Shown: positions 7,746-64,000 of the stretch, piece after piece
Layout of the letters: each line of letters opens with the position of its first letter
Position numbering within the stretch: position 1 is the stretch's first letter
Source: Cystobacter fuscus
Lineage (GTDB): Bacteria > Myxococcota > Myxococcia > Myxococcales > Myxococcaceae
NCBI RefSeq assembly: GCF_002305875.1
Contig: NZ_CP022098.1
Location: 6,882,001 to 6,946,000, forward strand
Direction of reading: 5' to 3'
DNA length: 64,000 nt
Position numbers and translations under genes: made by a program
The notes under the pieces: generated by a model
Seen by the model: the letters and a program-made list of their open reading frames with translations, nothing else
Told to the model about the DNA's origin: nothing
Databases searched by the model: none

Positions 7746-7752
7746 AACCCCA

Positions 7753-7805: not shown

Positions 7806-7921
7806 ACATTCCCCGGGAGCAGGCCTCCACCTGACGAACCGAGTACCTCCTGGAAGTCGGGCGCGGTCCATGCGAACACTCTTTCCTGGGGCATGAGGGG
7901 AAGCCAAGAGGAGGAGCACGC

Positions 7922-8693: not shown

Positions 8694-8779
8694 GGAGCGC
8701 CCGAGGAAGGTGATCGGGTCGAGGGCCGGCGCGGTGGTGTGCAGGCTGCTCTTGGCCGTCTCCGCCGTTTCCGGCTTCG

Positions 8780-33949: not shown

Positions 33950-35532
33950 TGAGACCCGCCCTGCCCTCGTGTTTCCTCTTCCTGCCGGTGGCGCTGCTGC
34001 TCCTGTTCCCGGCCCACGCCCCGGCCGAGACGGTGCGCCTGCTGGTCTCCATCGGCGCCAACGTGGGCGCTCCGGAGGACGCGGTGCTCCGCTTCGCGGA
34101 CGATGACGCGGAGCGTGTCCGGAGGCTGTTCGTCGAGCTGGGCGGGGTGCGCGCGGACCGCGCCTACCTCCTCGTGGATCCGACGGCCACGGCCGTGCGC
34201 CAGCGGCTGGCGGAGGTGGCGGGCCGCATCGCCGAACTCCGCTCCGCCGGCAACGACGTGATCCTGGTGATCTACGTCTCCTCGCATGCCCGGGCCGGCG
34301 TGCTGCACCTGACCGGCACCGGGCTGCCCCTCGCCGAGTTGCGCGACACCACCCAGCAGCTCGGCGCGCGGCTGGCCGTGATCATCGTGGACGCGTGCGA
34401 GAGTGGCACCCTGGCGCAGCGCAAGGGGGGCAGCGCCGCGCCCGCCTATGACGTATCGCTCGAGCGGCTGCCCCTGCGAGGCCAGGTCCTCATCTCCTCG
34501 AGCGGGCCGGGAGAGAGCTCCGAGGAGTGGGATGCCCTCGAGGGCTCGCTCTTCACCCACCACCTGCTCACCGGCCTGCGCGGAGACGCGGACGCGGAGG
34601 GGGATGGGAGGGTGTCGCTCTCCGAGGCCTACGCCTATGCCTACCGGCGCACGGTGGCGGGCTCCAGCAGCGCGGGACAACATCCGGCCTACTCCTGGGA
34701 TTTGTCGGGCACGGGCGAGTTCATCCTCACCGAGCCAGAGGTCGCGCGCAGCGCGCTCGTGTTCCCGGCCCCGAGCTCCGGGCGCTTCGTGGTGGCGAGT
34801 CAGCCCCGCTCGGACGTGGTGGCCGAGGTGGACAAACAGCCCGGGCGGCCACTGCGGCTCGCGGTTCCCCCGGGCCGCTACCTGGTGCGCAAGCGGGCCG
34901 GGGCGAGCACGGGCCTGCTGGAGGTGGAGCTGCCCTATGGCGGCGAGCGCCCGGTGCTGGAGGAGAAGCTCGTCTGGCGCCGCTTCACCGAGGTGGCGTT
35001 GAAGGGGGGCTACGTGGCGCTGCGCAACTCCGCGCTGCTGGGCCTGGCGAGGCTGGAGAGCGCGCCCGTGCCGGGCTCGGGTCACCGGCTCGCGGGGGGG
35101 CTCGGCTACCGCCACACCTGGGGCTCGTGGTGGGCCCTGGGAACACTCTCCGCCACCGGCGCTTCCTACCGGGGCGTGGCGCTCGACATCACCGAGCGCG
35201 CGCTCGGTCTGGGCGTGGCCGCGGGCTACCGTTGGCTGGAGTGGGCGCTCGTGCCGCACCTGGGCCTCTCGGTGGAGCTCACCGGGATACAGCAGACAAT
35301 GCGCCGCGATGCCGAGGAGGAAATCCAGGACAACTTCGGCGCGCCTCCGCTCGCGCCGCGCCATGCGCTCGGGGTGGCCGTGGGGCCCGTGGCCGGAGTG
35401 GAGATTCCCCTGTGGAGCCACGCCTTCGTGCTCGTGCAGGGCCAGCTCCTGCTGCGCCAGCTGCCCTCGGAGCAGCGGCCCTCCGTGCGCCCCGCGGGAG
35501 TCGTCTCCGCGGGAGCCGGCTGGCGATTCTGA
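33946..35532 (+). CDS. Secreted caspase-family peptidase fused to a beta-barrel-like domain
   Basis: 528 residues. Signal peptide LPVALLLLFPAHAPAE. Residues ~28-260 are a C14 caspase fold: VRLLVSIGANVG, LRFADDDAERVRRLF, catalytic His in VIYVSSHARAG and catalytic Cys in VIIVDACESGTLA. After a linker the last ~170 residues are Gly/Trp/Tyr-rich alternating strands (LGYRHTWGSWWALGTLSATG..GWRF) ending in Phe, as in outer-membrane barrels. ATGA overlap with the anti-sigma gene makes a three-gene operon. Role inferred as an envelope-stress-linked protease or receptor. Confidence 0.82.
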   Translation: MMRPALPSCFLFLPVALLLLFPAHAPAETVRLLVSIGANVGAPEDAVLRFADDDAERVRRLFVELGGVRADRAYLLVDPTATAVRQRLAEVAGRIAELRSAGNDVILVIYVSSHARAGVLHLTGTGLPLAELRDTTQQLGARLAVIIVDACESGTLAQRKGGSAAPAYDVSLERLPLRGQVLISSSGPGESSEEWDALEGSLFTHHLLTGLRGDADAEGDGRVSLSEAYAYAYRRTVAGSSSAGQHPAYSWDLSGTGEFILTEPEVARSALVFPAPSSGRFVVASQPRSDVVAEVDKQPGRPLRLAVPPGRYLVRKRAGASTGLLEVELPYGGERPVLEEKLVWRRFTEVALKGGYVALRNSALLGLARLESAPVPGSGHRLAGGLGYRHTWGSWWALGTLSATGASYRGVALDITERALGLGVAAGYRWLEWALVPHLGLSVELTGIQQTMRRDAEEEIQDNFGAPPLAPRHALGVAVGPVAGVEIPLWSHAFVLVQGQLLLRQLPSEQRPSVRPAGVVSAGAGWRF

Positions 35533-46772: not shown

Positions 46773-46844
46773 AGCCGGGTTGAATCCAAGCTGGGGGGCT
46801 CGGGAGTCCTGACGTCGATGGCAACCGACGGAAGGAATCCTGGA

Positions 46845-49604: not shown

Positions 49605-49605
49605 A
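49465..49605 (+). CDS. Possible 46-codon leader ORF
   Basis: ATG 49465 (or ATG 49519, 28 codons) opens a frame ending ..VSDLGMSGDG and TAA at 49603-49605. The last A of the stop is the A of the next gene's ATG (TAATG). The overlap could couple translation. The product has no known similarity and the ribosome site is weak, so it may be fortuitous. Confidence 0.3.
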   Translation: MITAHKPATITHHHGNKIMENSVKFVFCVTARIEAQVSDLGMSGDG

Positions 49606-51416
49606 TGTCCGGGATTGCCGGGTGGATCGATCGCGAACGCGACCTGAGGACTGAAGGGCTGGCCGCGTCCCAGCTCGTGGCGGCGCTCGTCGCGCGTGGG
49701 CGTCACGGCGAGGGTCTGTGGCTAAGCCCACGGGCGATATTGGGGCAGCGGACGGATGCCGTCTGGGTAGGGACGGCCCAGCCGGCTGTGATTGAGCAGA
49801 ACGGTCGGGCGATGGTTGCGGCGGTGTGCGATGGGTACCTTCACAACGCGGATGACCTGTGGGCCGCCGCGGGTGCTGGTCCCAGTGCGGGAGGGCCCCC
49901 GTCGGTGGCCGAGGTCGTGCTGCATGCCTACCTGCGGTGGGGGCACGAGGCGGTGGAGCGGCTGGAGGGCAACTTCGCCTTCGCCGTCTGGGACGCTCGG
50001 ACCGACGAGCTGCTACTTGGACGAGACCGGGTGGGCATCAAGCCACTGAGCTATGCCCTGCTACCCCATGGCGTCGTGTTCGCCTCGGAGGTCGCGGCCC
50101 TGGCGGCGCACCCCCTGGTGACTCCGGAGGTCGACGACAATGGGCTATGCGCCCTCGTTACCCAGTTGCGCAGCCCCGGGCGCGGGGCGCTGCGCGGCAT
50201 GTACGAAGTACCGGCGGGCGGTACGGTCCGATTCACGCGCGACCGGGAGCTCCACCGCCGGTACTGGACGCTGGAGGCCCGCCCCCACACCCTCGGCCGC
50301 GAAGACACCATCAAGCAGATCCGTGAGCTGCTCGTTGACGCCATCAGCCGAGATCTGCGCGGCCTCGATCCCGCGGTCCTGCTCTCGGGTGGCCTGGACT
50401 CCAGCGCGCTGACAGGTCTGATCGCCAGCAACTCCGGCAAGCCACCGCGGACATTCACGGTGATGTTCGGCGACACGGCGGCCGCGGTGCCAGATCGGCC
50501 GTTCGCCGAAGAGGTTGTCCAGATGTGGGGCTGCGAGCACCACGAGGTCGCGGTCCGCCCGCAGGAGCTGTCTGATCCAGTGCTCCTGTCGTCCGTGCTC
50601 GCGGCGAAGGACCACCCGTCACCCTTCGGGGACAAGAACATCACCCCGTTCATATTCAGCCGGCGCGTCGCGGAGCGGGTGCCAGTGGTACTCAGCGGAG
50701 AGGCCGCTGATGCCATCTTCAGCGGCCTCTCCGGTGCGACCGACGGGGTGCGCGAGCCCTCCATGTTTCCTTGGATCGCGCGAGCCCGCGGGTTCGGCAT
50801 GGAGTACGGAATCGGCACCGGGCTGTTTGACGAGGCGTTACTGAGATCGGTGGACGTCGCCGGCTACCTGGATCGGCTGTACCGCGAGGCCAAGGCAGAG
50901 GTACCGCAGCTCGCGGGCACCGCCGCCGCCGACCGTGTGGCGCGAGAGGTGGACTATCTCCATGTGACGCGCCTGTTGGAGCAGACGGTCTATCACTCGG
51001 AGCGGCTCGGAGCGGCGGCGGGGCTTCAGATCCGATTCCCTATTGCCGACCACCGCCTGGTCTCTTATCTGTACAACGTTCCATGGCAATTGAAGCGCTT
51101 CGACGGACGTGAGAAGAGCCTGCTCCGGGCCATTGCCAAGGATCTGGTGCCCCCGTCGGTGCTCACGAGGGCCAAGGTTCCCTACCCGATCACCTATGAC
51201 GCGCACTACAAGGCCTCGCTCATCACACGGCTGCGGATGCTGCTCGATGACTCGACTGCCCCCGTACGTCCGTTGATTGACCTTCGTCGCGCCGCGGAAG
51301 TCATCGAGAACCACCGCCTGCTTGACCGCGGTGGCTGGCTCGGTCGGGCCGACGTCGAAATGGTCCTCCAACTCGACAACTGGCTTCGTCGATTGCGCGT
51401 ACGCGTCAATCTCTAG
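49605..51416 (+). CDS. Asparagine-synthetase-like amide/lactam synthetase without glutaminase Cys
   Basis: 603 residues. The N-terminus MSGIAGW aligns with the MCGIAGW of asparagine synthetases, but the glutaminase nucleophile Cys2 is Ser. The glutamine-pocket motifs are altered too (RGPDG to RGRHG; NGEIYN to DGYLHN). The synthetase half keeps the ATP PP-loop VLLSGGLDSSALTG, a GEAADAIFSG loop and the KSLLRAIAKD..LTRAKVPYP end with its Lys. Such glutaminase-dead members (beta-lactam synthetase, carbapenam synthetase, lasso cyclases) adenylate a carboxylate and use an amine or ammonia. It is the first large gene of the NRPS cluster, 25 bases before the adenylation gene. Start fixed by family alignment. 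Confidence 0.85.
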   Translation: MSGIAGWIDRERDLRTEGLAASQLVAALVARGRHGEGLWLSPRAILGQRTDAVWVGTAQPAVIEQNGRAMVAAVCDGYLHNADDLWAAAGAGPSAGGPPSVAEVVLHAYLRWGHEAVERLEGNFAFAVWDARTDELLLGRDRVGIKPLSYALLPHGVVFASEVAALAAHPLVTPEVDDNGLCALVTQLRSPGRGALRGMYEVPAGGTVRFTRDRELHRRYWTLEARPHTLGREDTIKQIRELLVDAISRDLRGLDPAVLLSGGLDSSALTGLIASNSGKPPRTFTVMFGDTAAAVPDRPFAEEVVQMWGCEHHEVAVRPQELSDPVLLSSVLAAKDHPSPFGDKNITPFIFSRRVAERVPVVLSGEAADAIFSGLSGATDGVREPSMFPWIARARGFGMEYGIGTGLFDEALLRSVDVAGYLDRLYREAKAEVPQLAGTAAADRVAREVDYLHVTRLLEQTVYHSERLGAAAGLQIRFPIADHRLVSYLYNVPWQLKRFDGREKSLLRAIAKDLVPPSVLTRAKVPYPITYDAHYKASLITRLRMLLDDSTAPVRPLIDLRRAAEVIENHRLLDRGGWLGRADVEMVLQLDNWLRRLRVRVNL

Positions 51417-51441
51417 TCTCCTCAAAACAAGGCAAAAGAAT

Positions 51442-52971
51442 ATGTCGACGACATCAGCAGGTGACCTCTACAGCCTGTTCTCGCATCAGGCCGCCAGGGT
51501 TGCCGCCCGAGATGCGGTGCGCGACCAGCGCGGCAGTTTGACCTACGCGGAGCTTGCCCGCCGCGCGGATGTGCTCGCGGTGGCGATCCGCGAGATGTGT
51601 CCGCAGCCGGGTACCCGCATCGGTCTACACCTGGGGCGCACGGCCGACGTGGTGGTGGCAGTGCTCGCGATCATCGCGACCGGCCACACGTACGTGCCGC
51701 TCGATCCGGCGTACCCACTTGAGCGGCTCAAGTTCATGGCCAGCGACAGTGGACTGACAGTCATCATCTCCGACCGGGAGGCGCCTGACGGAATCGGCGT
51801 CGCGAGAGTGCTTCGCCTGGACCGGGTCGACTGGTCCCGGGACGTCCCCGTTTCGCCGAGGATCGAGGCCGACCCCGAGAGCGCCGCCTACATCATCTAC
51901 ACCTCGGGCTCGACGGGTCTGCCGAAGGGCGTGGAGGTACGCAGGCGCAGCGTGGTGGCCATGGTGAACGCCGTGTGCTCGCGGCACCAGTTTGGCGAAA
52001 CCGACGTGTGGACGCTCTTTCACTCCTACTGCTTCGACTTCTCGGTTTTCGAGATGTGGGGAGCGTTGGCCACGGGTGCCACCCTCGTGGTGGTGCCGGC
52101 GGAGGTCGCCGCCTCGCCGCGCGCCAGTGCCGAGTTGCTCGTACGGGAGCGGGTCACGGTCATGAACATCGTGCCGTCGGTCTTCCGCTACCTGACCGCG
52201 GCCACGCGGCAGCTCGCGGATCGCCCCGTAAGCGTGCGCCGCATCATTTTCGGTGGCGAGTCGATCGATGTGGCCGACATCCGCTCCTGGCGGGACTCGG
52301 TTCGTGCCGACTGTGAGTTCATCAATACCTACGGCATCACGGAGACCACGGTGTTCGTCACCACTCGACCGATTCTGCCCGCCGAGCTCCAGTCCACCGG
52401 CGATGAACGCGAATTCGCCACCGACCTCGGCGAGCCATTGAATGGCTGGGAGCTCCAGGTCCTCGACGACAGCGGCGCTCCCGTCGAGCCGGGGGGAATT
52501 GGCGAGATCTGGGTTGCCGGTGATGGAGTCGCTGTCGGCTATCTCAACCGGCCCGAACTCACCGCGGAACGGTTCCGCCAGCTGGCGCTCCCTGGCCATC
52601 CTCCGAGGGTTTACTACCGCAGTGGTGACCTGGCCACGCGGACGACGAACAACGTGTATTGCTATTCGGGTCGAGCCGACGATCAGGTGAAGATCAACGG
52701 CTTCCGGATCGAACTCGGAGAGGTCGAGGCGGCGCTGCGCAAGGCCTCCGGGCTCCGGGAACTGGCCGTGGTCTGTACCCGTAGCCGGGTAGGAGGCCGG
52801 ATGCTGTCTGCCTTCTACGCCGCCGACGCCGTTTCGACGCAGGAACTCACCGCGCTCGCCCGCGCGACGCTCCCCGCCCACATGGTGCCCGGACGATTCG
52901 TTCAGTTGGCGGAGTTGCCGCGAAACGCGTCTGGCAAGACCGACCGGCGGGCACTGTCGGAGCGTCAGTAG
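51442..52971 (+). CDS. Stand-alone NRPS adenylation enzyme
   Basis: 509 residues: an A domain alone, no carrier or condensation domain. Core motifs: YIIYTSGSTGLPKG (A3), FDFSVFEMWGAL (A4), INTYGITETTVFV (A5), YRSGDLATR (A7), GRADDQVKINGFRIELGEVE (A8) and NASGKTD with the catalytic Lys (A10). By eye the ten-residue pocket code is D-F-F-N-I-G-T-V-F-K, close to the Thr code DFWNIGMVHK but with Phe for Trp and changed rim residues, so a Thr-like or small hydroxy/branched residue is plausible. It should aminoacylate a carrier in trans; the best candidate is the first PCP of the giant NRPS, which has no A domain of its own. Confidence 0.9.
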   Translation: MSTTSAGDLYSLFSHQAARVAARDAVRDQRGSLTYAELARRADVLAVAIREMCPQPGTRIGLHLGRTADVVVAVLAIIATGHTYVPLDPAYPLERLKFMASDSGLTVIISDREAPDGIGVARVLRLDRVDWSRDVPVSPRIEADPESAAYIIYTSGSTGLPKGVEVRRRSVVAMVNAVCSRHQFGETDVWTLFHSYCFDFSVFEMWGALATGATLVVVPAEVAASPRASAELLVRERVTVMNIVPSVFRYLTAATRQLADRPVSVRRIIFGGESIDVADIRSWRDSVRADCEFINTYGITETTVFVTTRPILPAELQSTGDEREFATDLGEPLNGWELQVLDDSGAPVEPGGIGEIWVAGDGVAVGYLNRPELTAERFRQLALPGHPPRVYYRSGDLATRTTNNVYCYSGRADDQVKINGFRIELGEVEAALRKASGLRELAVVCTRSRVGGRMLSAFYAADAVSTQELTALARATLPAHMVPGRFVQLAELPRNASGKTDRRALSERQ

Positions 52972-53011
52972 CCCCGCACAGACCTGCCGCCATTCGAGCC
53001 CGAGGAATCCG

Positions 53012-54778
53012 ATGAGCAAGAAACCCCGTAACTTCTCCAGCGACCCGAGTCGGCCCAGCTTCCTGGAGGAGCTCTATCAGGGCAGGTTCCGCTGGGACCT
53101 GATCCGAGACTTTCCTGTCCAGGATGCACAGGACCGGGCCGAGGGCGACCGCCTCGTCGAGCAGTTGAACGTCCTGCTTCGCGAGCGAATCGACCCCACG
53201 GCCGTTGACCGCGACCGCCAGCTACCTGAAGGCTTCCTCGCGGAGCTGGCCACGCGCGGCTACTTTCGGCTGCAGGCGGATCGAGCGGTCGGCGGGCACG
53301 AACTCTCGCACTACAACACGTTCCGGGTCGTCGTGGCGGCCGCGAGTTGGAGCACGCCGGTCGCACTGTCGATCGCGATCGAGAACGCGCTCGGCGCCAG
53401 CGCGTTCCTCTCGGTTGTGCCCGAAGGGCCGCTGCGTGAGTTGTTGCGCGCGCATGTTGCTCGCGGCGGCCTCTCGGCCAGCGCCGACAGCGAGCCCCAG
53501 GGGGCGGCGAACCAGCGTCGCGCCACCACCGCCACGCGAGTCGAAACGGCGGAGGCCTATCTGCTGAACGGCCAGAAGGTCTTCGTGGGGCACGCGCCCG
53601 TCGCCGAGCTGGTCAGCGTCTCGGCGACGATCCGCGACAACGGCCAGGAGCGGGTCCAGATGTTCTTCGTGCGGACCGACAGCCCTGGCGTGACCGCCGG
53701 ACAGTGGCACGAGTACATGGGAATCAAGGGCTTCCCCAACGGCTGGCTGAACTTCGACAACGTGCTCGTGCCCGCGGACCAGATGTTCGTGGAGCGCGCC
53801 TCCGAGCATCAGGTCCGGGTGACCCCGGAGACCGCGAAGATGGTGGCTCGGGGCCGGCTGCACCTCATCGCGGCGCCGTCGCTGGCGATCGCCAAGCTGT
53901 GCGTGCAATGGGCGCGAGACTTCGTGCTGCGGCGGGAGGTCGACGGCCGGAAGCTGGCGGACTACCAGGAGATTCAACAGCAGCTGGCGGAGTCGCTCGC
54001 GCAGACCTTCGCGATCGAGACGATGTCTCAGTGGTGCCTGCTTCCGGATGACCAGGGGCGGCAGATCAACCAGCGCTTCGAGCAGAACGCCTCCAAGAAC
54101 GTCAGTTCGCTGCTCTGCTGGGACGTCGTCGACCGGACGATGTCGCTGCTGGCGGCGGAGGGCTATGAGACCGCGCACAGCAAACAACAGCGGGGTGCGC
54201 CGCCGGTCCCAGTCGAGCGGTTCATGCGCGACGCGCGCAACCTGCGGATCTCCGGGGGCGTGGACTTCCAGATCGACAACTGGATCGCTCGGATGTCGAT
54301 CCTGTCGTACTACTACCCCGAGCCCGACCACGCGGACGAACTGGCGAAGAACGAGCCAGTCCGGGGCGATTTCGACGGCGCCGTCCTCACCGACCGCAAC
54401 CTCGGCCACCTCCGCTGGGTCGCGGACGAGGTCCATCGGTTCGGGGCGACCTGTCTGGAGTTGGCGCGCCGCAACCCCGACCGTGCCTCGCTGCAGGAGA
54501 ACGAGCGGACTCTCATCTTGCTCACCGGCATTGCCCGAGAGCTCCTCGTCATGTCCCTGACGCTCGCCCGCGCCTCCAAGATGGCCTCGACCGGCGACCA
54601 CAGCGGGCAGGAGCTGGCCGACGTGTATTGCGTATCGGCCGGGCACCGCATCGCCGATCTGCGTCGCCGGCTCTCCGCCAACGCTCCCGCCAATGTCCCA
54701 TCGCTCAACGCCGCCTGGCTGAGCGGCACCACCCTCGATCACCTCACCTACGACGCCGCCACCGGCTCCCGGCGCTGA
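53012..54778 (+). CDS. Long acyl-CoA-dehydrogenase-like flavoprotein
   Basis: 588 residues; GAGGA precedes ATG 53012. ACAD layout: N-terminal helices (LPEGFLAELATRGYFRLQAD), middle beta domain (LNGQKVFVGHAPVAELVSVS..GIKGFPNGWLNFDNVLVP) and C-terminal helices, plus a ~150-residue extension as in VLCAD/ACAD9. The position of the MCAD-type catalytic Glu (IYEGT) reads RISGGVDFQIDN, i.e. Gly415, so the usual alpha-proton base is missing. In biosynthetic clusters such proteins act on carrier-bound or free keto acids; one such group makes epoxyketone warheads. It starts 41 bases after the A-domain gene. Confidence 0.85.
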   Translation: MSKKPRNFSSDPSRPSFLEELYQGRFRWDLIRDFPVQDAQDRAEGDRLVEQLNVLLRERIDPTAVDRDRQLPEGFLAELATRGYFRLQADRAVGGHELSHYNTFRVVVAAASWSTPVALSIAIENALGASAFLSVVPEGPLRELLRAHVARGGLSASADSEPQGAANQRRATTATRVETAEAYLLNGQKVFVGHAPVAELVSVSATIRDNGQERVQMFFVRTDSPGVTAGQWHEYMGIKGFPNGWLNFDNVLVPADQMFVERASEHQVRVTPETAKMVARGRLHLIAAPSLAIAKLCVQWARDFVLRREVDGRKLADYQEIQQQLAESLAQTFAIETMSQWCLLPDDQGRQINQRFEQNASKNVSSLLCWDVVDRTMSLLAAEGYETAHSKQQRGAPPVPVERFMRDARNLRISGGVDFQIDNWIARMSILSYYYPEPDHADELAKNEPVRGDFDGAVLTDRNLGHLRWVADEVHRFGATCLELARRNPDRASLQENERTLILLTGIARELLVMSLTLARASKMASTGDHSGQELADVYCVSAGHRIADLRRRLSANAPANVPSLNAAWLSGTTLDHLTYDAATGSRR

Positions 54779-54799
54779 CCGGTCAAGAAAGAGCAACCC

Positions 54800-57700
54800 A
54801 TGAACACCGCACCACGGCAAATCCCTCTCTCCGTCGGACAAGAGGCCATGTGGATTGGCTGGAAGCTGGATCCCAGCCAATGGTCGCACATCATCCCGAC
54901 CCCATTCCTGGTGCGCGGCACGCTCGATATGACGCGGCTGCGCACGGCCATCGCGGCACTGGGAGAAGCCTACCCACAGCTTCGGGCACGGATCACGTCG
55001 GGCGCCGACGGGCTCGTGCTGGACTGGCCCGACTCGCCGCCTATCGAGGTGCGGGAGTCGACCTTCGTGGGCGACCGTGACGCGGCCGTACGCCGGACCT
55101 GGCAGCGCCCCTTCGACCTTCGCCGAGGGCCGTTGGCCCGGGTCGATGTGTTGCGTGGGCCGGACGAGACGGTCCTGCTGCTCGCGATCCACCACCTCGT
55201 GTTTGACGGGGCGTCGATCCTGATCCTGCTCGATGCCTTGCGCCGGGCCTATGCGGGCGAGTCGCTGCCTCCGGCCGACCCTACCGCGGCGTTGACGGAG
55301 TATGCTCGCCGTTCGCGGGAGCTGGCCGATACCACCGCCGGTGATCCGTCCCGGGAGTACTGGCGCCAGGTCCTGGGCGCGGCGGCTCCGGAGTTCGCCC
55401 TGCCCGCCACCGTCGATGCACCGCAGTACACGGTCCGGAGTGAAACACTCGAGCCACGGCTCGTCGCCGACTTGCGCGGCCGCGCCGAGGACCTGGGCGT
55501 TTCCTATGTCACCGTCCTGATGGCCGGGTATTTCGCGCTGCTGCGCCGGCACACCGGCTCCGAGGACGTGATCTCGTTCCTGCCGTTTCACGGGCGGACC
55601 ACCGAATCGCTGCGCGACCGGATTGGCTACTTCGTGAACGCACTGCCGATCCGCAGTGAGGTCCGCGGTTCGGACAGCTACGCCGCTCTGGTGCACCGCC
55701 TGCGCGGCCGGGTCAAGGATGCGATGCGGCACGGCGAGCTGCCGCTGCCGGCCATCATGCGAGCGGCTGGGCTGACCGGCCCGGCCGCCCGTGCGCGGAC
55801 CCACCAGACAGTGTTCCAGTATTGGAATGCGGGATTGCGTGATGGCGTCGATGTGCAGGCACTGCGGCTGAGCGCTCCCGATGCGACCGCCACCTTGAGC
55901 CTGCTGGACATGGAAAGCACCGCGGGGTTCACCCTGGCCGTCATGGTCCGCGAGGACAGCGCGGGAACGCATGTGCTGTGGAAGGATCCGGCCGGGGCCG
56001 TGGGCCCGACCAGGGTCGCCGCGATGGCGGCCGACTATCACGCGATCCTGCGCGAGCTGAGTACGAACCCGAACGCCGCGCTGCCCGCACTGGCCGCGCC
56101 GAGCCCGACAGCGTCTTCCGCCCCCCTCGCCACCAATACCCGCCCCGCGGCCGCGTACCCCGCCGAGGTCGCCGCGATGGTCGGCGTCTGGCAGGAGGTC
56201 TTGGGCGTCGGCGGGATCACCCCCGAGGACTCGTTCTTCGAGCTGGGCGGGCATTCGCTGCTCGCGGAGAGTCTGGTTCTCGCGGTGTCGCGTCACTTCG
56301 GCACGGAGGTCTCGATCCGGACGTTGTTCGAGTATCCGCGCCTGGCTGACTTCGCGGAGCAGGTCCGGGCGTCGAAGCCGAACGTGGCCGCCGAGAGCAT
56401 TTCTCCGCCCGCTGCCCCCGTCGTGGAGATACCCGCGTCCAGCTTCCAGCAGCGCATCTGGTTCGCCGAGCGGGTGGAGTCCGGCCGTGCCACCTACAAC
56501 GTCCCGCTGGCGTGGCGGGTTCCCGGTGGCGGCCTCGATGCGACGGAGTTGTCCCACGCGCTGGCCAGGATGGTGGCGCGACACGAGTTGCTGCGCACCG
56601 CGTTCCACGAGCGCGACGGCGAGTTGTGGCAGGTCGTCGGCGAGCCGTGGTCACCCCACGTCGACAGCGTCAACCTGCGCGATTGCGCGGACTCGGAGGC
56701 GGCGCTGCGCGACTGGCTGGCCGGTGCCTCCCACCATGAGTTCGATCCGGCGTCTGGACGCCTGCTGACCGCGGCCCTCGTTGAGCTCCCCGGGGCCGAC
56801 CAGCTGGTTTTCCTGTGCCTGCACCACCTGCTGTGGGACGGCGAGTCGATGGGCGTCCTGCTGCGGGAGCTGAACTCCTATTACAGGCCCACCGCCGCCG
56901 GCAGCACGGTGGTCGTGTCTGCTCCGCCGGCAACCGACTCCGGTCTCCCGGCGATGGCGCGCGCCGCCTCGGCCCATCAGGAACGGATGTGGTTCGTCGA
57001 CCGGTTCGAGGCCGGCCACGTGTACCCGACGTCGCCCGTGTACCACAACCTGCCTCTGTTCCTTCGGGTTGACCGTCTCGCCGCCCCCGACGTGCTGGCC
57101 AAGGCGCTCGACGCGGTCGTACGGGCACACGAGTCCCTGCGCACCGTGCTCGACAGCGTCGAGGGTCGGATCGTGCAGCGAGTGCGATCCGAGGTGACGG
57201 TCAGCCCGCAGTGGCTGCCAGCGCGGCCCGGGGTGGCGGGCGCCGGTGTGCCCGAGGCACTGACCGACTGGGCGGCGGCCCCGTTCGATCTGACGAGCGG
57301 CTGTCTGCTGCGGGTCGCCGTGTTGCCCGAGCAGTCTGGCGGCGGTTGGCTGGCACTCGTTGGCCACCAGGCGGTGGTCGACCGGGCCTCCCTGCGGCTC
57401 GTCGCCGAGCAACTCCTGGCCGGCATGGCCGGCGAGGCCCCCGTCCAGAGCAGCTACGCCGGCTGGCTGGATGAGGTGTCGGCCGCGGTCAAGGCCGAGC
57501 ACCTGGACTCCCGTGCGGCTCGACTGCAACCCGCCGTCGACGTGCTGCGGCTCCCCGAGCGGCGGCCGCGCGAGGCGATCCACGTCTACGAGGAGCGGCG
57601 CGTCGCGTTCTCGTTGCCCACCGCCCTCGTGGCCAACGCGGAACGGCTTGGCTTCAACGTCTCGGACGTGCTGCTGGGAGCCTTCACCGCGCTGCTCGGC

Positions 57701-60700
57701 TGGTATTCCGGCCAGCAGGACATGGTCATCGGCGTCAGTCACCCCGGGCGGCGCGCGGAGACCCGGCATGTAGTCGGCCCGCTGGCCAACCTGTTGCCGG
57801 TGCGGCTGCGCCCGGCCGTGAGCATGCCTTTCACCGCGCTCGTCGGGCAGACGGCCGCCGAGACGGCCCACGCCCGAGCGCATGATCAGGCGTTCTTCGA
57901 CGAGCTGGTACGCCGGGTCGACCCGTCCAAGGACATGAGCCGTACGGCCTTGTTCGACGTGCTGTTCACGTACTCCGAGGATCCCAGGCTGATTCGTACC
58001 TCCGGCGGCCTCGTCGCCGAGGAGGTTCAGACGGCCAGCGGATACGGCAAGTACGATCTGCACCTGTTCCTGCAGCCGGGCTCCAGTTCGCTCGAGGGCT
58101 GGCTTGTCTTCAATGGCCGGTACTTCGACGACGACCAGGTGCGGGCCATGACCGAGCACTATCGCGCGCTGCTCGACCAGCTCATCGCCGCACCCGAGCG
58201 GGCGATCGGCGATGCCGATCCGTTGACCGAGGACGAGCGGTACACCCAGCTGATGGTGTGGAACGCCACCGATGCCGGGTACCCCGAGACGGCGGTCCAC
58301 GATCTCATCCGGCAGCGGGCACTCGCCCGGCCCCAGGCGGTGGCCATCACCGCGGGGGACATCTCGCTGACCTACCGCGAGCTGCTGGATCGGGCCGAGG
58401 CACTGGCGCGGGCGCTGGTGGCGAAGGGCGTCGGCCGTGGCGACCTGGTGGCCCTGCTGCTGCCGCGCGGCCCCGAGCAGGTCCAGGCGATGCTGGCCGT
58501 CCTGCTGGCCGGCGCCGGGTACCTGCCGATAGACCCAGCACTGCCCCGTGACCGCGTGCAGTTCATCCTCGCGGACTCGGGCACCCGGTGGGCCATCGTG
58601 GCCGACGATGCGGTGCCGCATCCGGGTCTGGACGGCTTCGCCGGACAGGTCATGCACCCGACCCAGTCCGACAGCTCCGGAGCGGCGCTGCCGCGGGTCG
58701 CGCTGGATACGCCGGCGTACTGCATCTACACGTCTGGGACGACCGGCCGGCCCAAGGGCGTCGTGATCACGCATCGCAACCTCGTCCGGCTGCTGGTCAA
58801 CGACCGCTTGCCGTTCAGCTTCGGTGCGTCCGACGTCTGGACGATGTTCCACTCCTACGCCTTCGATTTCTCGGTATGGGAGTTGTTTGGCGGCCTGGTC
58901 CACGGCGGACGGGTGGTCCTGGTCACCCAGGAGCAGGCGAAGGACCCCGAGCAGTTCTGGGAGCTGCTGCAGCGCGAGCGCGTCACGGTCCTCAACCAGA
59001 CGCCCAGCGCGTTCCGGCGGCTGCTCGGGTTGAAGCCCCAGTCGCCCAGCAGCCTCAGCCGGTTGCGCTACGTCATCTTTGGCGGAGAGGCGCTGCGTCC
59101 GGCCATGCTCGGCTCGTGGATGGAGCGCTACCCGCATGTGCGGCTGGTCAACATGTACGGCATCACCGAGACCACCGTGCACTCGAGCATCCGCACGGTC
59201 ACCCGGGCTGATGTCGACTCCGACGCCAGCATCATCGGCACGCCGATCCCCACGACCACGCTCCTGCTGCTGGACCCGGTCACCCGCGGCCGGCTGTTGC
59301 CCGTTGGCGCGGTGGGCGAGATCTTCGTCGGCGGCGCGGGCGTGGCCGGCGGCTACCTGAACCGGCCGGAACTCACGGCGCAGCGCTTCGTCGCCTCGCC
59401 CGTCGGCTCCGGCACCCTGTTCCGCAGCGGGGATCTCGCCCGCTACACCCCCGACGGCGCGCTGCACTTCATTGGCCGCGCCGATTCCCAGGTGCAGCTG
59501 CACGGCTACCGCATCGAACTCGGAGAGATCGAGTCCTGCCTGCGCGAGCATCCCGCGGTCGTCGAAGCGGTCGTCATCGCCGAGGACGATCGCCTCGTCG
59601 CGGTCGTCCAGAGCCGGGCCGGGGTCGCCCTGGCCGAGCTGCGTGGCCACCTGGCACGCAAGCTGCCCGAGTACATGATCCCCTCGGTGTTCCAGCTCGT
59701 CGACAAGATGGTGCTGACCTCGAACGGCAAGCTCGACGTCGCCGCCGTGCGTGCCCGTGCCGTCCCGCTGGACAGCGGCGCCGGCTCCGAGCCTCGCACC
59801 CCCACGGCTGTCGCGATGGCTGGCATCTGGTCCGAGCTGCTCGGTGTCGACAATGTGTCCGCCGATGACTCCTTCTTCGCCCTCGGCGGTCACTCCATGC
59901 TGGCGGTCCGGCTGGTCAACCAGCTCCGCCGTCGGTTCCAAATCGACCTGCCGATGAAGACGCTGTTCGAGTGCCCCCGGCTGCAGGATCTCGCGGACCT
60001 GATCGACCAGAAGATCGGCGGGCAGCCGTCCGCCGGGCACTCCGGATCGTCCTCGGCGCGCGCCGCGGGTGAGCTGGCCGCCACCGCCTTCCAGCGACGC
60101 CTGTGGCTCGCCGAGACCTTCGACGAGCAGGCCCGCAACAACGTGGTCCTGGCCTGGAAGGCAGCCGGCAGGCTCGACGTCGAGCTGTTGGGTCGCGCCC
60201 TGAGCCAGCTCGTGGCCGGGCACGAGTTGCTGCGGACGGCATTCGTGGCCGACGAGGACACCGTCCGGCAGGTGGTGACCGGCGGATGGCGGCCCGAGGT
60301 GGAACTGCTGGACCTGCGCGCCTCGCGTGACCCCGACGCCGAGATGGCGCGGTGGCTCGACACGGCCGCCAGCAGACGATTCGACCTCGCCTCGGGCCGG
60401 CTGCTGCGAGCGGCCGTGGCCGACCTCGGCGCTCAGGGGCACGCGCTGCTTTTGTGCCTGCACCACCTCGTCATCGACGGTGAGTCCGTCCCCGTGCTCC
60501 TGGCCGAGCTGGACCGTTACTACCGTGCGGTCGTCACCGGCGAAACCGCGGCGCCGCCAGCCGTGCAGTACCGGGACTTCGTGGCCTCGCAGGAGGCCCG
60601 CCAGGACACGGCGCGGCGCGAGGACGCGCTGGACTACTGGCAGCGAAAACTGGCCGACGCACCGGCGAACCTGGCGTTCCCCGCGCCGGTTCCGGCGGGC

Positions 60701-63700
60701 CGCAACGGCGCTGTTCGCGTGCCACTCCCGGCGGGCCTGCCCGACCGGCTGCGGCCGCTGCAGACCCAGCACGGGGTCACGTGGTTCATGGCGTTCGGCG
60801 CCGCGCTGGCCGTCGCGCTGCACCGGTGGACGGGACAGCGCACCATCACCCTGGGCGTGCCGGTCTCGACCCGGGACCCCGCCAGCTTCACTGGGCTGCT
60901 CGGACCCTGCCTGAACACGCTCGTGCTCCGCTCGGACCTGGCCGCCGGCGCTCCCCTCGGCGACGCCCTCCAGGCGATGCGCACCGAGATGCTCGGCGCG
61001 CTCGAACACGCCGGGGCTCCGTTCGAGGAGGTCGTGAACCGGCTCTCCCCGGCCCGCGGTGTGGGGCACACGCCCTACATCGATGTGACGCTCAACATGA
61101 ACCTGCGCAGCGCCCGGCGGGCCCTGCTGGGCGGGATCGAGCTGACCCCGCTGTTCTTCGACTCGCTGTGGTCGCACGAAGCGAAGTTCGGTTTGACCCT
61201 GACGGTCGCCGAGCAGGACGGCGAACTGACCGCCATTCTGTCGTATCAGGGGCAGCGTGTATCCGCCGCGGACGCCGCGGCACTGGCCGACAGCATTGCC
61301 GGGCTGCTCGGCGAACTCACCGAAGCGCCACAGGGTCGTTCGTCCCGGGGGAGCGCGACGAGCGCCGCCGATGACCGGGTGCAGTACCGACACTTCGTCA
61401 CCGCGCAGATCTCGCAGCGGGACAGCGTGCAGCGCCGGAACGATCTGGCCTACTGGGAGAACAAGCTGGCGGGTGCCCCGGCCTACGTGGAGTTCAGCCC
61501 CCCGGCGGAGCCTGGACCCCACGGCGTCGTGACGATCCCACTGCGCGCCGACCTGCTGGAGCGGTTGCGACCGTTGCAGGCCCGGTATGGCGTCACACCG
61601 TTCATCGTCACGGCGGCGGGCCTGGCCGCTCTGCTCCACCGCTGGACCGGCCACGCCGACGTGGTGATCAGCAACCCGATCGCGAACCGTGACAACCCGG
61701 ACTTCGCCGAGCTGCTGGGGCCGTGCCTGAACACGGTGGTGCTGCGCTCCCAGCTCGCCAGCAACGCGACGTTCCTGGACGTCTTGCACGGCATGCGCTC
61801 GGAGGTGCTGGAGGCTTTCGAGCACGCGGGGGCACCGTTCGAGGAGGTGGTGGAGCGGCTCAACCCGCACCGCCGACCCGGTCGGACTCCGTACGCGGAC
61901 GTGTCGCTGACCTTCAGCGCCGTGCCGGCACAGCCCGCCTCGCTGGCCGGACGCCCGTTGCAGGCCGCCGACATCAGCCACGCGGGTGCTGGCTACGCCG
62001 GCAAGCTTGGCCTCACCGTGGGCTTCACCCTGGACGGTACGAAGCTGTCCGGCAACGTCGCGTACCATGGGGCGCGCTATCGCCGTGACGACGTGGAGCG
62101 CTTCGCCACCCTGCTGGGCCGGCTGATGGAGCTGATGCCGGACCACCTGGATCAGCCGGTGGCGGCGCTCGACGTCGCCGCGGACGAGCTCGCGCGGCTG
62201 CGCCGGTGGGAGCGCGGACCCGAGCCCGAGCCGATGACGCCGGTCCCCGCACTGGTGCTGCGGCACGGCCGCGACCGGGCCTCGGCACCGGCCGTCGAGT
62301 CGCTCCGTGGAACGCTGGACTACCAGGGACTCATCGGACGTGCACGGGCGCTGGCGGCCCGGATCCGACCGAGGCTGCGCGGCGCGGACCCGGTGGTCGC
62401 GCTGCTGCTCCCGCGCGGCGAGGACTTCACGGTGGCGATGCTGGGAAGCTGGCTGGCGGGTGCGGCCTTCTGCCCGATCGACCCGGTGTGGCCAGACAGT
62501 CGGGTGAGGTTCGTTCTCGAGGACCTCGACACGCCCGTGTTGCTCACCGACCACGACGGCGCGGCACGGTCAGGCTCCGTGCCGACCCTCCGCGTGGATG
62601 AGACGGACGCGACCGCGGGGGGCAGCGAGGCGGACGACCCGAACTGGAGCGCCGGATCCACCGCGTACGTGATCTACACCTCCGGCACCACGGGTACCCC
62701 GAAGGGCGTGGTCGTCACGCACGGGGGATTGGCCCAGCTGATCCAGTGGACCGCGCGCCACTACGCGATCGGCGACCGCGACCGCTGCTCGCATCTGATG
62801 AGCGTCGGGTTCGACGCCTCCCAATGGGAGGTCTGGTCCGCGCTGGCGACCGGCGCCTGCCTGGTGCCGCACGTGGAGCCAGTCGTCGCATCGACGGTCG
62901 GAGCCTGGCTGGACCAGCACGGCATCGACGTCGCGTTCATGGCCACGCCGCTCGCGGAGGCCGTATGGAGGGCCGGGACGGGCCCGAAGCGGCTGCGCTG
63001 GATGTTCATCGGCGGCGCCTCGCTCTCGGAGTGGCCGCCGCCCGGGCTGCCCTACAGGGTAGGCAACGCCTATGGCCCCACCGAGAACTCGGTGGTCGCC
63101 ACGATCCACGACCTCGAGGCAGTGCCGCAACCTCCCCTCAACCGGATCGGCCGGCCCATCGCTGGGGTTCGCGTGCTCGTGCTCGACCCACAGGGGCGCC
63201 GGTGTCTCGTGGGCGTCCCCGGTGAGATCTGCCTGGCTGGCGGCGGTCTGGCCACCGGCATTCTCCGGCGGCCAGACCTGACCGCCGACAGGTTCCGCTC
63301 GGTGGAACTCGATGGCGAGTCGATCCGGATCTACCGGACCGGCGACCTTGGCCGCTGGCTCGCCGATGGCACCGTCGAGTACCTGGGCCGGGCCGACCGG
63401 CAGCTCAAGATCCGCGGGTACCGGATCGAGCCCGGCGAGATCGAGCAGGTGCTGCTCCGCCAGCCGGAGGTGGCCCAGGCGGTGGTCCATGGCGATTCGC
63501 AACAGACCCCCGCGCTGGTGGCCTACGTGATCCCCAGCCAACCCGGCCGCACCGACACCGCGCGGTTGCTGGCGCGGCTGCGCTCCAGCTTGCCGGCCTA
63601 CATGGTCCCCGAGGCCGTGGTGTGGCTCACGGAATTGCCCCTGAACACCAGCGGCAAGGTCGACGTGGCCAGGCTGCCCCGTCCGATCCGAACGGACCTC

Positions 63701-64000
63701 GTCGGCGGGGGCGGATTCACGGCCCCTGGCAGCGAGCTCGAGCGCCGCATCGCCACGGTGTGGTCGGAGGTGCTGGGCACCCAGGACGTCGGTGCGCACG
63801 ACAACTTCTTCGACCTCGGCGGCAACTCGCTGAGCCTGGCCAGGCTGCATAGCCGACTGGTCGCGGAGCTGGGCCGCGACATCCCCATCGTCGACCTGTT
63901 CGAACACCCCACCGTGGCGGCGCTCGCCACGGCCTTGGAGAACGGCGCGCAGTCGGCACCGGTCCGGCCCCGCCGTGCGGCCCGGCCCGTTCGCCGCGGC
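54800..64000 (+). CDS. Giant NRPS, continues beyond the window; includes two half C domains
   Basis: At least 3067 residues in one open frame with no stop to the last base. Order by residue: C1 7-430 (HHLVFDG at 131-137), PCP1 (Ser486), an N-lobe-only C 544-700 (HHLLWDG 675-681), full C3 ~720-1140 whose motif is HQAVVDR (856-862, catalytic His lost), A2 ~1150-1640 with pocket DFWNIGMVHK (Thr), PCP2 (Ser1699), full C4 ~1760-2180 (HHLVIDG 1888-1894), a C-lobe-only C 2190-2480, A3 ~2490-2950 with pocket about D-A-W-M-F-G-A-V-V-K (hydrophobic), PCP3 (Ser3010). There is no thioesterase or reductase yet. C1-PCP1 has no A domain and probably takes its residue from the stand-alone enzyme. Start ATG 54800 lies 21 bases after the ACAD stop. 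Confidence 0.95.
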   Translation, partial: MNTAPRQIPLSVGQEAMWIGWKLDPSQWSHIIPTPFLVRGTLDMTRLRTAIAALGEAYPQLRARITSGADGLVLDWPDSPPIEVRESTFVGDRDAAVRRTWQRPFDLRRGPLARVDVLRGPDETVLLLAIHHLVFDGASILILLDALRRAYAGESLPPADPTAALTEYARRSRELADTTAGDPSREYWRQVLGAAAPEFALPATVDAPQYTVRSETLEPRLVADLRGRAEDLGVSYVTVLMAGYFALLRRHTGSEDVISFLPFHGRTTESLRDRIGYFVNALPIRSEVRGSDSYAALVHRLRGRVKDAMRHGELPLPAIMRAAGLTGPAARARTHQTVFQYWNAGLRDGVDVQALRLSAPDATATLSLLDMESTAGFTLAVMVREDSAGTHVLWKDPAGAVGPTRVAAMAADYHAILRELSTNPNAALPALAAPSPTASSAPLATNTRPAAAYPAEVAAMVGVWQEVLGVGGITPEDSFFELGGHSLLAESLVLAVSRHFGTEVSIRTLFEYPRLADFAEQVRASKPNVAAESISPPAAPVVEIPASSFQQRIWFAERVESGRATYNVPLAWRVPGGGLDATELSHALARMVARHELLRTAFHERDGELWQVVGEPWSPHVDSVNLRDCADSEAALRDWLAGASHHEFDPASGRLLTAALVELPGADQLVFLCLHHLLWDGESMGVLLRELNSYYRPTAAGSTVVVSAPPATDSGLPAMARAASAHQERMWFVDRFEAGHVYPTSPVYHNLPLFLRVDRLAAPDVLAKALDAVVRAHESLRTVLDSVEGRIVQRVRSEVTVSPQWLPARPGVAGAGVPEALTDWAAAPFDLTSGCLLRVAVLPEQSGGGWLALVGHQAVVDRASLRLVAEQLLAGMAGEAPVQSSYAGWLDEVSAAVKAEHLDSRAARLQPAVDVLRLPERRPREAIHVYEERRVAFSLPTALVANAERLGFNVSDVLLGAFTALLGWYSGQQDMVIGVSHPGRRAETRHVVGPLANLLPVRLRPAVSMPFTALVGQTAAETAHARAHDQAFFDELVRRVDPSKDMSRTALFDVLFTYSEDPRLIRTSGGLVAEEVQTASGYGKYDLHLFLQPGSSSLEGWLVFNGRYFDDDQVRAMTEHYRALLDQLIAAPERAIGDADPLTEDERYTQLMVWNATDAGYPETAVHDLIRQRALARPQAVAITAGDISLTYRELLDRAEALARALVAKGVGRGDLVALLLPRGPEQVQAMLAVLLAGAGYLPIDPALPRDRVQFILADSGTRWAIVADDAVPHPGLDGFAGQVMHPTQSDSSGAALPRVALDTPAYCIYTSGTTGRPKGVVITHRNLVRLLVNDRLPFSFGASDVWTMFHSYAFDFSVWELFGGLVHGGRVVLVTQEQAKDPEQFWELLQRERVTVLNQTPSAFRRLLGLKPQSPSSLSRLRYVIFGGEALRPAMLGSWMERYPHVRLVNMYGITETTVHSSIRTVTRADVDSDASIIGTPIPTTTLLLLDPVTRGRLLPVGAVGEIFVGGAGVAGGYLNRPELTAQRFVASPVGSGTLFRSGDLARYTPDGALHFIGRADSQVQLHGYRIELGEIESCLREHPAVVEAVVIAEDDRLVAVVQSRAGVALAELRGHLARKLPEYMIPSVFQLVDKMVLTSNGKLDVAAVRARAVPLDSGAGSEPRTPTAVAMAGIWSELLGVDNVSADDSFFALGGHSMLAVRLVNQLRRRFQIDLPMKTLFECPRLQDLADLIDQKIGGQPSAGHSGSSSARAAGELAATAFQRRLWLAETFDEQARNNVVLAWKAAGRLDVELLGRALSQLVAGHELLRTAFVADEDTVRQVVTGGWRPEVELLDLRASRDPDAEMARWLDTAASRRFDLASGRLLRAAVADLGAQGHALLLCLHHLVIDGESVPVLLAELDRYYRAVVTGETAAPPAVQYRDFVASQEARQDTARREDALDYWQRKLADAPANLAFPAPVPAGRNGAVRVPLPAGLPDRLRPLQTQHGVTWFMAFGAALAVALHRWTGQRTITLGVPVSTRDPASFTGLLGPCLNTLVLRSDLAAGAPLGDALQAMRTEMLGALEHAGAPFEEVVNRLSPARGVGHTPYIDVTLNMNLRSARRALLGGIELTPLFFDSLWSHEAKFGLTLTVAEQDGELTAILSYQGQRVSAADAAALADSIAGLLGELTEAPQGRSSRGSATSAADDRVQYRHFVTAQISQRDSVQRRNDLAYWENKLAGAPAYVEFSPPAEPGPHGVVTIPLRADLLERLRPLQARYGVTPFIVTAAGLAALLHRWTGHADVVISNPIANRDNPDFAELLGPCLNTVVLRSQLASNATFLDVLHGMRSEVLEAFEHAGAPFEEVVERLNPHRRPGRTPYADVSLTFSAVPAQPASLAGRPLQAADISHAGAGYAGKLGLTVGFTLDGTKLSGNVAYHGARYRRDDVERFATLLGRLMELMPDHLDQPVAALDVAADELARLRRWERGPEPEPMTPVPALVLRHGRDRASAPAVESLRGTLDYQGLIGRARALAARIRPRLRGADPVVALLLPRGEDFTVAMLGSWLAGAAFCPIDPVWPDSRVRFVLEDLDTPVLLTDHDGAARSGSVPTLRVDETDATAGGSEADDPNWSAGSTAYVIYTSGTTGTPKGVVVTHGGLAQLIQWTARHYAIGDRDRCSHLMSVGFDASQWEVWSALATGACLVPHVEPVVASTVGAWLDQHGIDVAFMATPLAEAVWRAGTGPKRLRWMFIGGASLSEWPPPGLPYRVGNAYGPTENSVVATIHDLEAVPQPPLNRIGRPIAGVRVLVLDPQGRRCLVGVPGEICLAGGGLATGILRRPDLTADRFRSVELDGESIRIYRTGDLGRWLADGTVEYLGRADRQLKIRGYRIEPGEIEQVLLRQPEVAQAVVHGDSQQTPALVAYVIPSQPGRTDTARLLARLRSSLPAYMVPEAVVWLTELPLNTSGKVDVARLPRPIRTDLVGGGGFTAPGSELERRIATVWSEVLGTQDVGAHDNFFDLGGNSLSLARLHSRLVAELGRDIPIVDLFEHPTVAALATALENGAQSAPVRPRRAARPVRRG

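What the first reader, a model, noticed from the sequence alone, without database searches (positions are those of the whole stretch)
49605..64000. NRPS cluster pairing an amidotransferase-like enzyme, a trans-acting A domain and an ACAD: possible epoxyketone-type pathway
Seen: four same-strand genes with gaps of 21-41 bases: Ser2 asparagine-synthetase-like enzyme, stand-alone A domain, long ACAD, giant NRPS whose readable residues are Thr then a hydrophobic one. Known: peptide epoxyketone pathways (epoxomicin, eponemycin, and macyranone from Cystobacter) use an ACAD-type flavoenzyme on a C-methylated PKS-extended peptide, often ending Thr-Leu, and macyranone also uses an amidotransferase and an odd C domain. 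Inference: this may be a relative or variant, with the PKS just past the edge.
Basis: partly seen in the sequence, partly recalled or inferred. Interest (0 to 1): 0.8.

Follow-up and report, generated by a model that had tools for sequence, protein, structure and literature searches.

The report
Macyranone-type proteasome inhibitor gene cluster
This myxobacterial gene cluster very probably makes macyranone, an already described peptide that blocks the proteasome with a reactive epoxyketone; what is less expected is that clusters with much the same gene order occur in Streptomyces and that the big assembly enzyme carries spare half-domains.

Summary
The window lies in a 12,349,744-base genome, the exact size published for Cystobacter fuscus DSM 52655; macyranones come from C. 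fuscus MCy9118. Past the window edge the operon continues: MFS exporter, second stand-alone A domain, one PKS module (KS-AT-ACP, no C-methyltransferase) and a stand-alone thioesterase. The ACAD is an EpxF-family epoxyketone synthase (PDB 9gn5, E 1.9e-177; next best ACAD 79 bits) and keeps both residues essential in EpxF (Arg273, Ser406). Gene content and host species fit the macyranone pathway; the deposited macyranone sequence could not be compared. Not found in print by my searches: related clusters in nine Streptomyces records; absence of the island from another genome of the genus; an extra, dead condensation N-lobe (HQAVVDR instead of HHxxxDG) in 10 of 11 clusters and an extra C-lobe; no Cys2 nucleophile in 6 of 6 asparagine-synthetase-like enzymes. 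Another myxobacterial ACAD clade has Ala at the Ser406 position (9 of 9 read, of 18 hit), which predicts vinyl ketones. Which N-lobe works is not settled.

The parts
49605..51416 (+). Asparagine-synthetase-like amide synthetase; SGGLDSS loop present, but Ser instead of Cys at residue 2, so no glutaminase nucleophile
   Evidence: Pfam/NCBIfam (TIGR01536 281.7 bits, cut-off 267.1); residue 2 is Ser in 5 of 6 and Ala in 1 of 6 cluster homologues, starts set by homology
51442..52971 (+). Stand-alone adenylation domain, proposed to load the first carrier domain in trans
   Evidence: Pfam AMP-binding, TIGR01733 390 bits; NRPS module 1 has no A domain
53012..54778 (+). EpxF-family acyl-CoA-dehydrogenase-like epoxyketone synthase; Arg282 = EpxF Arg273, Ser414 = EpxF Ser406
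   Evidence: phmmer to PDB 9gn5 EpxF E 1.9e-177; residues and tree
54800..64000 (+). NRPS, 3074 aa, stop at 64024 just past the edge. The same operon goes on (window numbering): MFS exporter 64026-65261, second stand-alone A domain 65264-66847, PKS KS-AT-ACP 66844-69837, thioesterase 69834-70568
54800..56134 (+). NRPS C1, first condensation domain (HHLVFDG), proposed to join an acyl-CoA-type starter to the first amino acid
   Evidence: Pfam Condensation 187.6 bits; motif
56180..56359 (+). NRPS carrier domain T1, without a cis A domain
56426..56911 (+). Extra condensation N-lobe with intact HHLLWDG (profile positions 4-167 of 456 only)
   Evidence: joined directly to the following C-lobe in L022
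56945..57484 (+). Second N-lobe, catalytic motif changed to HQAVVDR, identical in 10 of 11 clusters read (absent in L022)
   Evidence: dN/dS 0.31-0.40 in four pairs
57485..58249 (+). Condensation C-lobe of module 2
58310..59731 (+). Adenylation domain, Thr code (DFW-N-IG-MVH)
59822..60004 (+). Carrier domain T2
60068..61375 (+). Condensation domain C3, complete and with intact motif (HHLVIDG)
   Evidence: AlphaFold model matches solved C domains, best Z 38, rmsd 3.2 over 414 residues
61379..62188 (+). Extra condensation C-lobe (profile positions 172-450), 44.7% identical to the C-lobe of C3
62273..63658 (+). Adenylation domain, hydrophobic (Leu-like) code
63746..63937 (+). Carrier domain T3

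Best explanation
This is the macyranone biosynthetic gene cluster (or its strain orthologue) in Cystobacter fuscus. Proposed pathway: the first condensation domain joins a methylmalonyl-type starter directly to an amino acid that the stand-alone A domain loads on carrier T1. Thr and a Leu-like residue are added by modules 2 and 3. The asparagine-synthetase-like enzyme turns the free carboxylate of the starter into an amide, probably from free ammonia because its Cys2 is missing. The single PKS module adds an alkylmalonyl unit (methylmalonyl is the simplest, since there is no methyltransferase and the ACAD needs a beta carbon). The stand-alone thioesterase frees the beta-keto acid, and the EpxF-like flavoenzyme decarboxylates, desaturates and epoxidises it to the epoxyketone, which inhibits the 20S proteasome of other organisms; the MFS protein exports it. 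Shown here: gene content, domain order, family of the ACAD and its two catalytic residues, relatives and island state. Inferred: substrates, order of amidation, product, export. Known for macyranone A from the literature: the epoxyketone and its proteasome inhibition.
For: The genome has one EpxF-like ACAD; its other six ACAD hits at E <= 1e-5 score at most 61.5 bits against 1324.5. EpxF match E 1.9e-177; Arg273 and Ser406 conserved, both essential in EpxF (PMC12624316). PKS KS-AT-ACP without methyltransferase, as stated for macyranone (PMC11212132). No loading module before C1, as the macyranone starter mechanism is described (PMC5577590 and PMC6274090, passages). Stand-alone thioesterase. 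29 kb including the whole operon are 97% identical in a second genome of the genus (G003).
Against: No sequence of the MCy9118 cluster could be compared, and the macyranone paper is not held, so the match rests on gene content and species. The A-domain codes were not checked against the macyranone structure. Genome mining of this kind has misled before: a cluster first taken for an epoxyketone pathway turned out to make matlystatins (PMC5719088, passages). The PKS acyltransferase motif (TAGH, with GHSLG) is neither the usual malonyl nor the usual methylmalonyl signature as I recall them. The second stand-alone A domain has no assigned role. The amidotransferase lacks Cys2, so the nitrogen source is unclear.
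Confidence: 0.86

Rival explanations
1. A sibling cluster, not macyranone: same logic, but a different peptide, for instance because strains of C. fuscus carry different epoxyketone clusters.
For: Related Streptomyces clusters differ in the last A-domain code and in accessory genes, so the chemistry does vary within this gene order. The deposited cluster could not be compared.
Against: Same species name as the producer, only one EpxF-like gene in the genome, and the described pathway features that I could test are present.
Confidence: 0.1
2. The ACAD stops at the unsaturated (vinyl) ketone, as MatG (matlystatins) and SnaO (threopeptin) are reported to do, so the warhead is an enone rather than an epoxide.
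For: PKS modules using methylmalonate and vinyl ketones occur together in matlystatin and threopeptin (PMC5719088, PMC11212132, passages).
Against: Ser406, needed for epoxidation in EpxF (S406A stops at the enone), is kept here and in 11 of 11 window-type ACADs, while 9 of 9 ACADs read from the other myxobacterial clade have Ala. MatG and SnaO themselves could not be checked at this position.
Confidence: 0.08
3. The ACAD is a catabolic VLCAD-type or prolyl-carrier-type dehydrogenase that happens to lie near an NRPS.
For: It has the ACAD domains and weak NCBIfam hits to several ACAD families, all far below their cut-offs.
Against: 594 bits to EpxF against 79 to ACAD9, 72 to VLCAD and 38 to prolyl-PCP dehydrogenase; tree split with 100/100 support; gene order kept with NRPS, PKS and TE in distant bacteria.
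Confidence: 0.01

Closest known systems
Macyranone pathway (Cystobacter fuscus MCy9118)
   Same: Species, amidotransferase-like enzyme, ACAD, PKS module without methyltransferase, free-standing thioesterase, no loading module
   Different: No difference known to me; sequence identity and product could not be tested
Epoxomicin / eponemycin / TMC-86A pathways (EpxF, EpnF, TmcF)
   Same: NRPS then one PKS module then EpxF-family ACAD; Thr-Leu-like order as in epoxomicin (recalled); both catalytic residues of EpxF
   Different: No C-methyltransferase in the PKS; thioesterase on its own gene; asparagine-synthetase-like gene and trans A domain; extra condensation lobes (their NRPSs were not examined here for lobes)
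Matlystatin (MatG) and threopeptin (SnaO) pathways
   Same: Methylmalonyl-type PKS step and an EpxF-like ACAD
   Different: Those are reported to stop at the vinyl ketone; the window enzyme keeps Ser406
Unnamed-product Streptomyces clusters (L016-L024)
   Same: ACAD-NRPS-MFS order in 8 of 9 records, followed by PKS-TE in 7 of these 8; 55-67% identical ACAD; dead N-lobe in 8 of 9 (not L022). L024 has its NRPS and MFS on another contig
   Different: No second stand-alone A domain between MFS and PKS; asparagine-synthetase-like gene in 4 of 9 within the stretch fetched; last A-domain code differs in 6 of 7 read (L023 is close)

Membership tests
Macyranone biosynthetic cluster | EpxF-family ACAD with intact catalytic Arg and Ser | tested here: met
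   roles of the residues from PMC12624316
Macyranone biosynthetic cluster | PKS module without methyltransferase | tested here: met
   Pfam on the 997-aa PKS: KS, AT, ACP and linker models, no methyltransferase; the feature is stated in PMC11212132
Macyranone biosynthetic cluster | Amidotransferase gene and free-standing thioesterase (features recalled from the JACS 2015 abstract) | tested here: met
Macyranone biosynthetic cluster | First C domain acts on an acyl-CoA without a loading module | tested here: inconclusive
   Only the absence of a loading module was tested: the NRPS starts with C1-T1; the reaction is described in PMC5577590 and PMC6274090
Macyranone biosynthetic cluster | A unique condensation domain (recalled from the abstract) | tested here: inconclusive
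   Extra and dead lobes found, but the paper was not readable, so it is unknown whether this is what was meant
Macyranone biosynthetic cluster | Sequence identity to the deposited MCy9118 cluster | not testable with these tools
   No such record was offered by the collections used; paper not held
Macyranone biosynthetic cluster | 2-methylmalonamide peptide epoxyketone product | not testable with these tools
   needs chemistry
Epoxomicin/eponemycin-type cluster | C-methyltransferase in the PKS module | tested here: not met
Catabolic VLCAD/ACAD9 | Groups with VLCAD/ACAD9 in a tree | tested here: not met
Class II glutamine amidotransferase | Cys2 nucleophile | tested here: not met
   Ser in 5 of 6, Ala in 1 of 6, although the asparagine synthase model TIGR01536 passes its cut-off

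The most novel reading that the evidence does not exclude
The NRPS uses a three-lobed condensation unit: the active N-lobe (HHLLWDG) works with the C-lobe of module 2, while a second, catalytically dead N-lobe (HQAVVDR) sits between them as a conserved non-catalytic part (for example a docking or gating piece), matched by a spare C-lobe after C3. An asparagine-synthetase-like enzyme without Cys2 makes the terminal amide from free ammonia. The operon is shared between Streptomyces and Cystobacter by horizontal transfer.
Probability: 0.35. Interest if true: 0.5.

Novelty: already known. Interest (0 to 1): 0.4.

Why it matters
Peptide epoxyketones are the scaffold of the drug carfilzomib (PMC12624316). 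If this is the macyranone cluster, the complete C. fuscus DSM 52655 genome gives a deposited strain with the pathway. The Streptomyces relatives give hosts with easier genetics and candidate proteasome inhibitors. The Ser/Ala position gives a one-residue test that may sort EpxF-like clusters into likely epoxide makers and likely vinyl-ketone makers. The conserved dead N-lobe is a concrete case for asking what non-catalytic condensation lobes do.

Tried and rejected
Catabolic or prolyl-oxidase reading of the ACAD: rejected on scores and tree. Epoxomicin-type (gem-dimethyl) reading: rejected because there is no methyltransferase.

Pairing of the extra lobes by AlphaFold: the model of active N-lobe + dead N-lobe + C-lobe has mean pLDDT 70.8 and pTM 0.42. 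Its matches to solved C domains have rmsd of 19.9 to 27.6, so the lobes are not packed as in a C domain. Of the 50 rows shown, 46 begin in the dead N-lobe and 4 in the active one; Foldseek gives rmsd 22.8 to 28.9. The C3 model is clear; none of its 50 rows reaches into the extra C-lobe.

An alternative, that the extra N-lobe and the extra C-lobe are two halves of one C domain split by an inserted module, was not excluded: their profile ranges 4-167 and 172-450 fit together and they are 46% and 45% identical to the lobes of C3. L022, where the active N-lobe is joined directly to the module 2 C-lobe, speaks against it.

A link between the dead N-lobe and the stand-alone A domain was considered and dropped: L022 has the A domain but no dead lobe, and six records (L016-L021) have the dead lobe but not this A domain beside the ACAD. 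Methylmalonyl against ethylmalonyl by the AT motif: not decided. Looking for MatG or SnaO: 9 of 394 actinomycete genomes had a match at E <= 1e-60, seven of them new; none was identified as these. Two (L072, L073) lie beside PKS genes (Pfam on L072 and its continuation only). Literature: macyranone 14 papers, epoxyketone with ACAD 10, Cystobacter with epoxyketone 5, epoxyketone with Streptomyces and amidotransferase 0, partial or split condensation domains 4, vinyl ketone with ACAD 2; apart from the papers cited, only listings were seen. That the Streptomyces relatives, the dead lobe or the Ser/Ala split are not in print rests on these searches of an open-licence library alone. (methylmalonamide) and one search added nothing.

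That G003 may be C. fuscus DSM 2262, G001 C. ferrugineus and g26 Corallococcus are guesses from size and recall; nothing rests on them.
Full report
Where it is. The window is G000:C1:6882001-6946000 of a single-contig genome of 12,349,744 bases. That is the exact size published for Cystobacter fuscus DSM 52655 (PMC5658505, part 1 of 2 read). The macyranones were isolated from C. fuscus MCy9118 (PMC10913735 and PMC8009326, passages). The macyranone paper itself (JACS 2015) is not held, so what I say about it comes from passages in other papers or is marked as recalled.

The operon. I fetched the DNA past the window. Eight genes lie head to tail from 49605 to 70568 in window numbering: asparagine-synthetase-like enzyme, stand-alone A domain, ACAD, NRPS (54800-64024), MFS exporter (64026-65261), second stand-alone A domain (65264-66847), PKS (66844-69837) and thioesterase (69834-70568). 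The last four joins are gaps of one and two bases and two overlaps of four bases. carB follows on the other strand (named by eye and by its 99% match in G003). Pfam shows the PKS as KS-AT-ACP without methyltransferase or KR, and the last gene as a thioesterase.

The ACAD. Against all PDB sequences the best match is EpxF, the epoxomicin warhead enzyme (9gn5, E 1.9e-177, 594.5 bits). Next come ACAD9 at 79 bits and VLCAD at 72; prolyl-PCP dehydrogenase scores 38. In a tree of 38 rows it falls with EpxF, apart from VLCAD, ACAD9 and six other ACADs of its own genome (split 100/100; the program warns of long branches, and EpxF's exact place within the group is open). The genome has no second gene of this kind: the other six hits at E <= 1e-5 score at most 61.5 bits. 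EpxF Arg273 is needed for decarboxylation and Ser406 for epoxidation; the S406A variant stops at the unsaturated ketone (PMC12624316, parts 1 and 2 of 4 read). Both residues are kept in the window enzyme (Arg282, Ser414).

A-domain readings. The NRPS A domains read DFW-N-IG-MVH, which is the Thr code, and DAW-F-FG-AVV, which is close to the Leu code. The codes of reference are recalled. Module 1 is C-T without an A domain, so the neighbouring stand-alone A domain probably loads T1. The lack of a loading module agrees with the macyranone starter mechanism as told by PMC5577590 and PMC6274090 (passages).

Why macyranone. Same species name, one EpxF-like gene, PKS without methyltransferase (stated for macyranone in PMC11212132, passages), separate thioesterase and amidotransferase (recalled from the abstract). 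I put 0.86 on this being the macyranone cluster or its strain orthologue. The deposited sequence could not be compared, and one earlier EpnF-based prediction of an epoxyketone turned out to be the matlystatin pathway (PMC5719088, passages).

An island with Streptomyces relatives. In a second genome of the genus (G003) 29 kb including the whole operon are 97% identical. A third (G001) has both flanks (window 48914 and 70640) but a different 1.8-kb stretch between them, without a match to the cluster proteins. G001 and G002 have no match for the ACAD at E <= 1e-60. So 2 of the 4 genomes held for the genus carry it. A pattern scan of named genomes, which finds close relatives only, gave nine records with relatives at 55-67% identity, all Streptomyces. 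In 8 of the 9 the order ACAD-NRPS-MFS is kept; in 7 of these PKS and TE follow. In L023 no PKS or TE of this type was found after the MFS in the stretch fetched, and L024 is split over contigs. The asparagine-synthetase-like gene is present in 4 of 9 (L020, L021, L023, L024) and the first stand-alone A domain in 3 of 9 (L022, L023, L024), within the stretches fetched. In the ACAD tree the Cystobacter pair sits inside the Streptomyces clade (9 rows 100/100, 11 rows 99/98) and away from the other myxobacterial clade, which points to horizontal transfer, most simply from actinomycetes (inference).

Extra condensation lobes. Between T1 and the Thr A domain lie an N-lobe with intact HHLLWDG (Pfam positions 4-167 only) and then a full C domain whose motif is HQAVVDR. 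After C3 lies an extra C-lobe (positions 172-450). HQAVVDR is identical in 10 of 11 clusters read (window, G003, eight Streptomyces; absent in L022). In L022 the active N-lobe (65.6% identical) is joined directly to the module 2 C-lobe (48.4%) and the dead lobe is gone. Since L023 and L024, which branch outside in the ACAD tree, have the dead lobe, L022 most simply lost it; this suggests that the active N-lobe and the module 2 C-lobe can be a working pair. dN/dS of the dead lobe is 0.31, 0.39, 0.33 and 0.40 in four pairs, and of the extra C-lobe 0.10, 0.39, 0.35 and 0.41. All are below 1, so both look maintained; in the three Streptomyces pairs they lie in the upper part of the range of the 13 domains, so they are less constrained than most. 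AlphaFold did not settle the pairing: pTM 0.42, and 46 of 50 aligned rows begin in the dead lobe rather than the active one, at rmsd near 21, which if anything speaks against my reading. C3 itself models as a normal C domain.

The amide. The asparagine-synthetase-like enzyme has Ser at residue 2 in 5 of 6 homologues and Ala in 1 of 6, never Cys (starts set by homology), so it should not hydrolyse glutamine, though the NCBIfam asparagine synthase model passes its cut-off. Free ammonia as nitrogen source, or another amine, is inferred.

Warhead class by one residue. At the Ser406 position Ser is found in EpxF and in 11 of 11 window-type enzymes (window, G003, nine Streptomyces). Nine of nine ACADs read from the other myxobacterial clade have Ala; 18 genomes with such hits were found and nine were not read. 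Of seven further actinomycete relatives two have Ser, one Ala, three Val and one Ile, and one myxobacterial outlier (G129) has Phe; one of the two with Ser lacks the Arg. In the three loci of the Ala clade read more widely (G016, L077, L078) the ACAD follows NRPS and PKS genes, with a thioesterase gene recognised in G016, L030 and L031. By analogy with S406A these should make vinyl ketones. MatG and SnaO, reported to stop there (PMC5719088 and PMC11212132, passages), could not be checked.

Self-protection. The genome has a single proteasome-family match, in an open frame of 196 aa, the size of HslV; the name HslV is inferred. The producer therefore seems to lack the 20S target.

Verdict. Observation confirmed, interpretation supported, cluster most likely already known. 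Interest 0.4, for the Streptomyces relatives, the conserved dead lobe and the possible Ser/Ala rule rather than for the cluster itself.

Noticed in passing
L015, L030-L037; clusters in L077, L078 and L027-L029: A second clade of EpxF-like ACADs in unnamed myxobacterial genomes of the same family has Ala at the EpxF Ser406 position (9 of 9 read, of 18 hit) and lies beside NRPS and PKS genes; predicted vinyl-ketone makers.
   Followed up: partly
L016:1899-9691: In Streptomyces canus no asparagine-synthetase-like gene was found beside the ACAD; instead there are an A-T-TE protein, a P450, a prephenate dehydrogenase, an aminotransferase and an O-methyltransferase, which looks like supply of a hydroxylated or methylated tyrosine.
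   Followed up: partly
window 5097-9503: Two group II intron D1-D4 matches on opposite strands (5097-5238 + and 9367-9503 -), a further group II intron match at 6885-7038 and a reverse-transcriptase-like frame at 5530-6861 (by eye).
   Followed up: no
window 46818-48890: The M13 peptidase gene beside the island is open here, reduced to fragments at this place in G003, and lacks its middle 1.3 kb in G001.
   Followed up: partly
L022:11770-18912: The S. viridiviolaceus NRPS lacks the dead N-lobe and also lacks the last A-T, while an A-T-like match follows the thioesterase gene (33% identity).
   Followed up: partly
window 33805-35532: A caspase-domain (Peptidase C14) protein gene.
   Followed up: no
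L072, L073: EpxF-like ACADs with Val at the Ser406 position lie beside PKS genes; in L072 the neighbours are a KS-AT-KR-ACP-TE module, a P450 and an FAD enzyme.
   Followed up: partly
window 65264-66847 (L009:2264-3847): A second stand-alone A domain, code about DSA-L-IA-EVW, found in the two Cystobacter-genus genomes and not between MFS and PKS in the Streptomyces clusters; role unknown.
   Followed up: no
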